This document shows, in pieces, positions 1 through 26,493 of a stretch of 51,994 nucleotides of DNA. The stretch comes from Butyrivibrio sp. (GTDB taxonomy: Bacteria; Bacillota; Clostridia; Lachnospirales; Lachnospiraceae). Both the position numbers and the translations under genes were made by a program. The stretch is taken from NCBI GenBank assembly GCA_024692165.1, contig JAILMY010000029.1, positions 1 to 51,994 on the forward strand, in the 5' to 3' direction. The notes beneath the pieces were generated by a model. The model was not told the origin of the DNA and did no database searches. It saw nothing but the letters and a program-made list of their open reading frames with translations. How positions within the stretch are numbered: the first letter of the stretch is position 1; the number at the start of each line of letters is the position of its first letter.

Positions 1-55
1 GTAGAGCACCTGACTCTTAATCAGGTTGTCCAGGGTTCGAGACCCTGGCGGTGCA
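1..55 (+). tRNA. tRNA-Lys (anticodon CTT), 5' end truncated by the window start
   Basis: Anticodon stem/loop CCTGA-CTCTTAA-TCAGG gives anticodon CTT; T-arm CAGGG-TTCGAGA-CCCTG, then acceptor strand and discriminator A. Confidence 0.9.
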
Positions 56-60
56 CGCCG

Positions 61-105
61 AGTACTGTTTTCGTGGGTATATCCCATGGGGATGGTACTT
101 TTTTT
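61..105 (+). terminator. Intrinsic terminator after tRNA-Lys
   Basis: AGTAC...GTACT outer stem with inner GTGGG/CCCAT, followed by T7. Confidence 0.6.
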
Positions 106-121
106 CGCGTTAAAGTGAGCC

Positions 122-254
122 ACGCAAGATAAAAGACATAAAATATTGTTCGTGGGGAGCTTGCTCACCTAAGAACTGTATTTTATGTCTTTTAATTTAT
201 GCGGCGAACGCCGCGTAAATGAGAAATTCGCAAAGCGAATTTCGAATCTTGCGT
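122..254. other. Multi-hairpin element with four-way-junction folding potential
   Basis: ACGCAAGAT (122-130) / ATCTTGCGT (246-254) encloses three hairpins: TAAAAGACATAAAATA 130-145 / TATTTTATGTCTTTTA 179-194; ATTTATGCGGCG 195-206 / CGCCGCGTAAAT 209-220; GAAATTCGC 223-231 / GCGAATTTC 235-243. Confidence 0.6.
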
Positions 255-367
255 ACCTAATCGAATGCCGCGACAACGACGCCAGAAGTGCAGAAATCTA
301 TGATTTCGTCGCACTTCACGCACAGCGTGTGAACAAGCGCAGCGGTTACGAGTCTGTCGGCATGGCT

Positions 368-1687
368 TCACCTCACCCCCACATACGCATCTACATCCTT
401 CACCTCATACTCCTTTATCCTCACCCCATCATAGCAGTGTTCAAACACAACCACCGCCTCGGCGCCCTTCTTTGTCTCATCCATCTTTCCCTGATAGGCC
501 CTGAAATTCCCCAAAGAATAAAACACCACGGTTTTTCTTCCAGATTCGCAGCTGATCTCGCTTACCTCCTGCACCACATGAGGATGACTTCCAATGACCA
601 CATCAGCTCCTGCCTCAGCCAAAAACTGTGCCATCTCCTTCTGTTCATCACTTACTTCGCTCTCATATTCATTCCCCCAATGGGCAAATACGATCACAAA
701 ATCCACCTCTGCCTTTGCATCTTCAATATCCTTCCTTACCTGCTGCCTCTCCTTCTCATCCCGGGGAAGGTAGTGTACCGCAAAAGGATATTTATCCGAA
801 GCATCCATTCCATTTGTCCCATATGTATAGGAAAAAAGCGCAAACTTAAGTCCGTTTCTTGAAATCACTTCATAGGGCCTGTATTCTTTATCTCCACTAT
901 TTTGTACTCCAATGGCCTTGATCCCATTTTCCTCATAAAAGGCAGTTGTCACATCAATTCCATAGATTCCCTTGTCGAGAGCATGGTTATTTCCACAGAC
1001 CGCAATATCAAATCCTGCAGCTGCCAATACCTTACCTACTTCCATGGGTGATCCAAACAACGGATATCCACTCACCGCAGATTCCTTATCCACAAGAACG
1101 GTTTCCGCCCCAAAAGCTGCTATATCGGCCTCTTTGATCTCTTTTTCAAAACCCTCATATAAAAATCCGTATTCGCCACCTTCATGGCTATTGGCGTAGT
1201 CCATGATCTCACGATGAATGATGTTATCCCCAAAAGCTATAAATCTGACCTCATTATCCACATTTTTCAGGCCAAAGGACTCCCATCTCCAAAGGGTATT
1301 ATTCCCCTCTGTATCCTCCAAAAGAAGGGTATCCTCATTCTCCCCTATAACCTTCATCCTGGTCACTTCACGGCCTATGTCAGAAGCAAACCATAACGGC
1401 TTAAGCTCTCCGTCTTTCAAAACGTCATAGATAAAAATATGCTGTGAAAGCTCCTTTTCATCCTCCAAAACCCAGAATGGCCTGTGCTTCCCAAATCGCC
1501 CTCTTTTCCATAAAAGCTCGATCTTTTCCGGCTCTCCGTCTCTGTCTATATCCGCAAAAAGAGTGTCCTGAACCTTTGTTGAAATACTGCGCTTCCACAG
1601 GAAAAATATGCAGCAAAAGGCTACTGCTATCCCAAAGAGAAGCAGTAGCCCCAAATATATCTTTCTTTTTTCTGATTTGCCCGTCAT
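368..1687 (-). CDS. CapA family (PGA_cap metallophosphatase-like) membrane-anchored protein
   Basis: N-terminal TM segment; VRFIAFGDNIIHREI..., AVCGNNHALDKG, VIGSHPHVVQ and FYSLGNF motifs typical of CapA/PgsA. ATG at 1687 overlaps the upstream stop (ATGA); the ORF track extends to 1717. Confidence 0.85.
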   Translation of the reverse strand: MTGKSEKRKIYLGLLLLFGIAVAFCCIFFLWKRSISTKVQDTLFADIDRDGEPEKIELLWKRGRFGKHRPFWVLEDEKELSQHIFIYDVLKDGELKPLWFASDIGREVTRMKVIGENEDTLLLEDTEGNNTLWRWESFGLKNVDNEVRFIAFGDNIIHREIMDYANSHEGGEYGFLYEGFEKEIKEADIAAFGAETVLVDKESAVSGYPLFGSPMEVGKVLAAAGFDIAVCGNNHALDKGIYGIDVTTAFYEENGIKAIGVQNSGDKEYRPYEVISRNGLKFALFSYTYGTNGMDASDKYPFAVHYLPRDEKERQQVRKDIEDAKAEVDFVIVFAHWGNEYESEVSDEQKEMAQFLAEAGADVVIGSHPHVVQEVSEISCESGRKTVVFYSLGNFRAYQGKMDETKKGAEAVVVFEHCYDGVRIKEYEVKDVDAYVGVR

Positions 1688-23377: not shown

Positions 23378-23409
23378 TCAAAGCCTTAGCGCTGATCCAT
23401 CAAACAATA

Positions 23410-23437
23410 AGAGAACTGGCAGTAATGTCAGTTCTCT
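23410..23437 (+). terminator. pgi terminator, AGAGAACTG-type hairpin
   Basis: AGAGAACTGGCAGTAATGTCAGTTCTCT followed by TTT. Confidence 0.8.
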
Positions 23438-23451
23438 TTTCCAATAAAAAA

Positions 23452-23480
23452 GAGAACTGACTGGTTTTCCATCAGTTCTC
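23452..23480 (-). terminator. mtnN terminator, AGAGAACTG-type hairpin
   Basis: GAGAACTGA c TGG TTTT CCA TCAGTTCTC; minus strand ends in CTCTTTTTTATT. Confidence 0.8.
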
Positions 23481-26428: not shown

Positions 26429-26493
26429 ATGATCAGTAAAGCTAAAAAGAGAACTGGCAGCATGTCAGTTCTCTTTTTAGCTTTACTGATCAT
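26429..26493. terminator. Very long perfect palindrome, bidirectional terminator between convergent genes
   Basis: ATGATCAGTAAAGCTAAAAAGAGAACTG - GCAGCATGT - CAGTTCTCTTTTTAGCTTTACTGATCAT; 28-bp perfect arms. Confidence 0.85.

What the first reader, a model, noticed from the sequence alone, without database searches (positions are those of the whole stretch)
122..254. Intergenic element that can fold into a compact four-way junction beside tRNA-Lys
Seen directly: a 9-bp outer stem (122-130/246-254) encloses three almost abutting hairpins of 16 bp (130-145/179-194), 12 bp with one G.T (195-206/209-220) and 9 bp (223-231/235-243). The first has a further GTTC/GAAC inner stem (148-151/173-176). 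Nearly every base between 122 and 254 is accounted for by pairing, and no coding gene explains it. Inference: a structured non-coding RNA, or a palindromic mobile/REP-like element inserted after the tRNA terminator. This is the window's best candidate for an undescribed non-coding element.
Basis: partly seen in the sequence, partly recalled or inferred. Interest (0 to 1): 0.6.

Follow-up and report, generated by a model that had tools for sequence, protein, structure and literature searches.

The report
Portable four-way-junction RNA element in Lachnospiraceae
The stretch beside tRNA-Lys is a real folded RNA module, present about twenty times in this gut-bacterium genome and throughout its family, that sits just after the ends of important genes and even inside the RNase P ribozyme, keeping its shape while its sequence changes almost completely.

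Summary
Window 117-260 (+) folds into the stated four-way junction (-67 kcal/mol, z -11.7). Seventeen Butyrivibrio orthologues, always directly behind tRNA-Lys(CTT), keep the fold although hairpin 1 is rewritten: 32 of 61 pairs have double-sided changes. A covariance model shows a dispersed family: at least 18 copies in this genome, copies in 102 of 150 genera sampled from its family, few elsewhere, none found in viral contigs or near RAYT-like transposases. Copies start 0-20 nt after a same-strand stop codon in 29 of 44 non-redundant cases (10 expected), including tuf, rplQ, rplL, rpsB and rpsI; others follow tRNA 3' ends. In 21 Butyrivibrio genomes a copy fills the P12 loop of RNase P RNA. 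Rfam's Clostridiales-1 (RF01699) matches the window 2 bits above cut-off, but true RF01699 copies form a separate sister family in the same genome. Best explanation: a co-transcribed, MITE-descended RNA module now fixed at orthologous sites, acting in cis on RNA processing or stability at functional 3' ends. The structure and family are strong; the biochemical role is inferred. New variant of a known kind (repeat-derived structured RNAs such as ERIC, NEMIS, EFAR; sister of Clostridiales-1).

The parts
1..56 (+). 3' part of tRNA-Lys (CTT); the contig starts inside the gene
   Evidence: Rfam tRNA match 1-55; complete tRNA-Lys(CTT) on the overlapping contig C234
60..105 (+). intrinsic terminator of tRNA-Lys
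   Evidence: terminator scan: 18-pair stem and T-run; conserved in all orthologues
117..260 (+). whole four-way-junction element (Butyrivibrio type 1)
   Evidence: covariance model R2: 129.5 bits, E 2.4e-38, full length
117..130 (+). outer stem, 5' strand; 122-130 paired here, 117-121 also paired in about half of the orthologues
   Evidence: fold; pair counts
131..193 (+). hairpin 1: long stem 131-146/178-193, fully rewritten between genomes yet paired; conserved tip loop GCTTGC 159-164
   Evidence: 23 of 27 pairs with double-sided changes; loop GCTTGC/GTTTAC/GCTCGC in most copies, 38 +/- 2.1 nt from the 5' end
195..220 (+). hairpin 2 with conserved GGCGAANGCC core and a conserved U.G pair
221..245 (+). 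hairpin 3 (223-231/235-243) resting on conserved GA 221-222 and GA 244-245, read as tandem sheared G.A pairs
   Evidence: conserved in alignments A1 and A2; the G.A geometry is inferred from sequence
246..259 (+). outer stem, 3' strand (246-254 paired in the window)
262..368 (+). degenerate 3' part of a second (type 2) copy, ending GAGTCTGTCGGCATGGCT
   Evidence: same module repeated in G063, G036 and G033; folds on its own

Best explanation
The window holds one copy of a Lachnospiraceae family of about 130-nt structured RNA modules. Each is a four-way junction: a closing stem, one long hairpin of nearly fixed reach with a stable UU-type loop, a short GGCGAANGCC hairpin, and a third hairpin resting on a conserved G.A/A.G motif. 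It is co-transcribed with the RNA before it. It probably descends from a MITE-like repeat (its termini can supply TGA or TAA stop codons) but is now mostly inherited at fixed sites: after tRNA genes, directly after stop codons of housekeeping genes, and in the P12 loop of RNase P RNA. Most likely mechanism, inferred: the junction is the first stable structure behind a functional 3' end. It folds once the terminating ribosome or the processed RNA end clears it, blocks 3'-to-5' exonucleases, and exposes the roughly 20-bp hairpin 1 to a double-strand RNase such as RNase III. This would uncouple the upstream RNA from what follows.
For: Structure under selection: 147 double-change cells against 39 shuffled; 57 of 61 pairs, 768 against 221. 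G.U outnumbers A.C 33:14 (p 0.008), with the same bias in two smaller alignments. Length ruler: hairpin-1 loop 38 +/- 2.1 nt from the 5' end, three hairpins in 114 of 120 copies. Family. Position: 29 of 44 within 20 nt of a same-strand stop codon against 10.1 expected, no such effect on the start-codon side or behind opposite-strand genes; tRNA 3' ends a few to about 15 nt upstream; RNase P P12 in 21 genomes. Orthologous sites across genera: rubrerythrin, tuf, spoIVB. The rplL-rpoB gap and the end of rpsB are places where differential expression within an operon is common (established knowledge). Not a terminator: T-tract after 6 of 120 copies. Comparable repeats are described as transcribed and affecting mRNA stability (PMC1590033; PMC3733652).
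Against: No RNA-seq, cleavage or half-life data; the RNase III and exonuclease steps are untested. The tRNA-Lys copy lies behind an intrinsic terminator, so it needs read-through or its own promoter. About 40% of copies have an opposite-strand gene upstream and need a promoter; -10-like boxes there are only weakly enriched (12 against 6.7 expected). Many Butyrivibrio genomes lack the copy at tRNA-Lys or in rnpB, so no single copy is essential. ORF calls were heuristic, and the copies studied were top-scoring ones.
Confidence: 0.4

Rival explanations
1. Selfish palindromic repeat (MITE or RAYT/IS200-type), moved through folded single-stranded DNA; positions at stop codons and RNA loops are merely where insertion does no harm, and its own terminal TGA/TAA makes insertion at a gene end tolerable.
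For: Multicopy and dispersed; termini TGAGCC/TAAGCC give stop codons; tandem and partial copies, outer-stem-only remnants; sister RF01699 has many near-identically scoring copies per genome; a Y1-transposase-domain protein exists in the genome.
Against: No element of this family within 3 kb of 20 RAYT-like genes; copies in one genome are not near-identical; positions conserved across genera with compensating changes; strong strand and position asymmetry; none in 2.9 million viral contigs by pattern or in phages/plasmids by BLASTn.
Confidence: 0.3
2. Trans-acting sRNA family: each copy gives a stable small RNA, processed from the upstream transcript or from its own promoter, which binds a common protein through the conserved loops and G.A motif.
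For: Conserved unpaired or non-canonical core with variable stems; Rfam types the sister family as sRNA; -10-like sequences about 7-18 nt upstream of some copies.
Against: About twenty copies with different stems and no conserved single-stranded seed; a copy sits inside RNase P RNA; stop-codon placement points to cis action.
Confidence: 0.15
3. Simply a divergent copy of Clostridiales-1 RNA (RF01699).
For: 50.0 bits against cut-off 48, full-length alignment; same loop, stop-codon placement and host range.
Against: 129.5 bits with R2; fifteen RF01699 copies of the same genome score 83-111 bits with RF01699 while RF01699 copies score at most 33 with R2; GGCGAANGCC hairpin in 0 of 19 RF01699 copies against 97 of 120 here.
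Confidence: 0.12
4. Pairing of hairpin 1 is kept by template-switch mutation at DNA palindromes (PMC8794818) rather than by selection for RNA.
For: Hairpin 1 is rewritten wholesale while pairing stays near perfect.
Against: Does not explain constant arm length, conserved G.A motif, loop covariation CUUG/UUUA, G.U bias or double changes in outer stem and hairpin 3.
Confidence: 0.08

Closest known systems
Clostridiales-1 RNA, Rfam RF01699 (Weinberg et al. 2010, PMC2864571)
   Same: Multicopy intergenic RNA of Lachnospiraceae; closing stem plus three hairpins; long hairpin 1 with GCUUGC tip; copies start at stop codons; the window just passes the family cut-off
   Different: RF01699 has a TGAT/ATCA-type closing stem, a long hairpin 2 carrying GAGGAA/TTCCGA, and an internal loop in hairpin 3; the window has none of these. 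Models separate the two families clearly
ERIC, NEMIS and EFAR repeats (MITE class; PMC3733652, PMC1590033)
   Same: Short palindromic-ended repeats of similar size next to coding sequences, transcribed, folding strongly; described as stabilising or destabilising mRNA
   Different: Here structure rather than sequence is conserved, sites are orthologous across genera, strand bias is strong, and one site is inside RNase P RNA; no transposase was tied to it
REP elements (PMC3733652)
   Same: Dispersed palindromes at gene ends whose termini can supply stop codons
   Different: REPs are 20-40 bp single hairpins with GTAG/CGTC tags; no R2 element found beside RAYT-like genes
STRR repeats reported in cyanobacterial rnpB (recalled from memory, not tested)
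   Same: Repeat inserted in RNase P RNA
   Different: Short tandem repeats, unrelated sequence and structure

Membership tests
Clostridiales-1 RNA (RF01699) | Score at or above the Rfam gathering cut-off (48 bits) | tested here: met
   50.0 bits, model 1-166; missed by the fast-filter scan of the whole window
Clostridiales-1 RNA (RF01699) | Scores best with this family rather than a sister | tested here: not met
   129.5 bits with R2 against 50.0; genuine RF01699 copies show the reverse. Caveat: R2 was built from relatives of the window copy
Clostridiales-1 RNA (RF01699) | Long hairpin 2 arm and GGGAG/CGGAG internal loop of hairpin 3 | tested here: not met
   Alignment deletes most of hairpin 2's interior and both sides of the internal loop; sequences compared
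Clostridiales-1 RNA (RF01699) | Four-way junction with GCUUGC-tipped hairpin 1 | tested here: met
MITE/REP-type mobile repeat | Dispersed multicopy intergenic palindrome | tested here: met
MITE/REP-type mobile repeat | Linked or matching transposase | tested here: not met
   No R2 element within 3 kb of 20 Y1-transposase (PF01797) genes; other transposase classes not tested
MITE/REP-type mobile repeat | Near-identical recent copies, target-site duplication | tested here: inconclusive
   Copies in the genome are highly diverged and no duplication was seen by eye; element-free orthologous sites exist but boundaries are unclear
Intrinsic terminator | U-tract directly after the stem | tested here: not met
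   6 of 120 copies, 2.6 expected; none in the window copy
ERIC/NEMIS/EFAR-like mRNA stability element | Transcribed and alters transcript stability | not testable with these tools
   needs RNA data

The most novel reading that the evidence does not exclude
A family-wide, portable RNA domain that Lachnospiraceae use as a general cis module at functional RNA 3' ends and inside RNase P RNA, read by a dedicated protein or nuclease that recognises its shape (fixed-length arm, UU-type loop, G.A motif) rather than its sequence.
Probability: 0.3. Interest if true: 0.85.

Novelty: new variant of a known kind. Interest (0 to 1): 0.62.

Why it matters
An abundant RNA fold in one of the major bacterial families of the gut and rumen has no assigned function and is only marginally caught by Rfam. 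Its placement right behind stop codons of ribosomal-protein, tuf and other core genes, behind tRNAs and inside RNase P RNA makes a role in RNA maturation or decay directly testable, and would show how a repeat family can become a standard part of a genus's transcripts, including a ribozyme.

Tried and rejected
Default Rfam scan of the window found only tRNAs; the RF01699 match appeared only with permissive filters. BLASTn against phages and plasmids found nothing; a degenerate pattern found nothing in viral contigs. Intrinsic-terminator role rejected. RAYT mobilisation not supported. A -10-like promoter signal in front of copies with an opposite-strand upstream gene is only weak. miRNA-family matches are chance hits of long hairpins. 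One feature regex (RF01699 hairpin-3 core) was badly written, matched nothing in either family, and was ignored. Literature searches found no description of this element; the candidate list of PMC8040213 lies in supplements that could not be opened, so it may be listed there unnamed.

Full report
OBSERVATION. The energy is -67.1 kcal/mol against -27.8 +/- 3.4 for shuffles (z -11.7); the complement folds less well (-56.5). Only its extent needs redrawing: homologues and the covariance model give 117-260.

ORTHOLOGUES. A BLASTn search of 79 genomes of the genus gave matches in 42. Contig names and lengths identify the genus as Butyrivibrio (for example contigs of 218,349 and 182,077 bases). The best-scoring matches all lie directly behind tRNA-Lys(CTT) and its terminator. 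Two forms occur there. Type 1, the window's, has closing stem GAGCCACGCAAGAT/ATCTTGCGTGGCTC; type 2 has GAGCCATGC/GCATGGCTC with an extra CGACA/TGTCG helix. Hairpin 1 has an almost completely different sequence in each genome, yet stays paired.

COVARIATION. On 17 type-1 orthologues aligned without structure, 91.3% of cells pair (77.1% shuffled), 32 of 61 pairs show double-sided changes, and 147 cells do (39 shuffled); sliding the partner by 1-3 columns destroys the signal. On 46 diverse copies 57 of 61 pairs show them, 768 cells against 221 (that alignment was fitted to the structure, so it leans towards it). These counts do not correct for relatedness, but the effect is very large by every measure.

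FAMILY. Model R1, built from the tRNA-Lys copies, finds other copies across the genome and in 56 of 61 genus genomes. Model R2 finds 18 copies at E below 1e-8 and 24 at E below 0.01 in this genome, copies in 102 of 150 genomes taken one per genus from the family, and in only 4 genomes of other families among 118 of the class. Organism titles are almost all Butyrivibrio and other Lachnospiraceae. Non-Watson-Crick features are conserved: the hairpin-1 loop is GCUUGC, GUUUAC or GCUCGC in most copies; hairpin 2 carries the GGCG...GCC core in 97 of 120; GA before and GA after hairpin 3 are conserved in the tRNA-Lys sets, with one exception in type 2. The loop lies 38 +/- 2.1 nt from the 5' end, and 114 of 120 copies fold into three hairpins. 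In pairs flanked by Watson-Crick pairs, G.U exceeds A.C 33:14 (p 0.008) and 17:4 in the own-genome set, as expected for a molecule acting as this strand; models that allow G.U favour this somewhat.

RNASE P. One copy of this genome lies inside RNase P RNA, in the loop of helix P12. Of 72 rnpB sequences compared in the genus, 21 carry a full copy there, 37 have an ordinary P12 of 11-23 nt, and the rest have intermediates, several keeping little more than the closing stem. All 21 full copies fold with hairpins 1-3 intact. A similar closing-stem-only remnant occurs at the tRNA-Lys site of G022. The tRNA-Lys site of many other genomes has no element.

POSITION. I read the surroundings of 120 copies. 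When the upstream gene is on the same strand, the element starts within 20 nt of its stop codon in 29 of 44 non-redundant cases, against 10.1 expected for a random place in the same gap (none of 200,000 simulations reached it). The start-codon side and opposite-strand neighbours show no such effect. In several copies the stop codon TGA or TAA overlaps the first bases of the closing stem. Other copies begin a few to about 15 nt after tRNA 3' ends (Gly, Arg, Leu). Upstream genes include rplQ, tuf, rplL, rpsI, rpsB, guaA, metG, ilvC, ychF, spoIVB, mraZ, glgD and rubrerythrin; the gene after the copy in L332 is rpoB. The same gene carries a copy in different genera (rubrerythrin in four, tuf in three), which points to inheritance in place. 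Copies behind opposite-strand genes show a weak excess of -10-like boxes (12 of 39 against 6.7).

RELATION TO KNOWN FAMILIES. Rfam RF01699, Clostridiales-1, matches the window at 50.0 bits against a cut-off of 48. Weinberg et al. 2010 list that motif as probably an RNA and probably not cis-regulatory, without further discussion in the main text (PMC2864571). In this genome 18 other loci pass the RF01699 cut-off, and the window copy is not among those returned. They often begin at stop codons too but have other sequence signatures, and RF01699 copies score at most 33 bits with R2. I therefore treat the window's element as a sister family rather than a plain member: it passes the score test narrowly and fails two structural tests. 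It works like, and may descend from, MITE repeats such as ERIC, NEMIS and EFAR, described as transcribed and as changing mRNA stability (PMC3733652, PMC1590033). Membership there is incomplete: no transposase link, no clear target duplication.

MECHANISM. Shown: conserved RNA-like fold, dispersed family, placement directly behind functional 3' ends, inclusion in RNase P RNA, strand asymmetry. Inferred: co-transcription; folding behind the terminating ribosome; exonuclease blocking; RNase III-type cleavage of hairpin 1. I put 0.4 on this cis processing/stability account, 0.3 on a mostly selfish repeat, 0.15 on a trans-acting sRNA family. A template-switch mutation process (PMC8794818) may help keep hairpin 1 paired but does not explain the rest.

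LIMITS. No expression data; heuristic gene calls; MAG assemblies; copies chosen by score; redundancy removed by hand from BLASTP clusters and visible repeats of the same flank. The P12 insertion and the tRNA-Lys site show gain or loss but not the direction or molecular mechanism.

Noticed in passing
window 1-121 and L003 (G000:C234) 1-121: Two contigs share their last 121 bases with one mismatch, and C234 stops exactly where the element's paired core begins, so the assembly broke at the element; this may reflect strain variation or the strong hairpins.
   Followed up: partly
L041 1287-1762 (G000:C176), and rnpB loci L187-L221: RNase P RNA of 21 Butyrivibrio genomes carries a full copy of the element in the P12 loop, others an ordinary short P12 or remnants.
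   Followed up: yes
L365-L380 (own genome), L345-L364 (other genera): Clostridiales-1 RNA (RF01699) is itself highly repeated in Lachnospiraceae (at least 17 per genome in many) and in this genome often begins at the TGA stop codon of the upstream gene.
   Followed up: partly
window 26429-26493 and 23409-23480: Near-perfect palindromes sharing the core AAGAGAACTGGCA/TGTCAGTTCTCTT, one of 31 bp with a 3-nt loop; look like a second small family of dispersed palindromes or bidirectional terminators.
   Followed up: no
L303 2501-2783 and L304 2357-2639: Two copies of the element in opposite orientations almost touch between convergent genes (rplQ and an unidentified gene), each starting at its own gene's stop codon.
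   Followed up: no
L117 (Treponema MAG contig): Three tandem matches to the hairpin 2-3 pattern about 76 bases apart in a contig labelled Treponema; may be a binning error or transfer.
   Followed up: no
L046 1165-1287 and 1315-1592: A copy lies just behind a T-box-like leader's terminator and before the ribosome binding site of the next gene.
   Followed up: no
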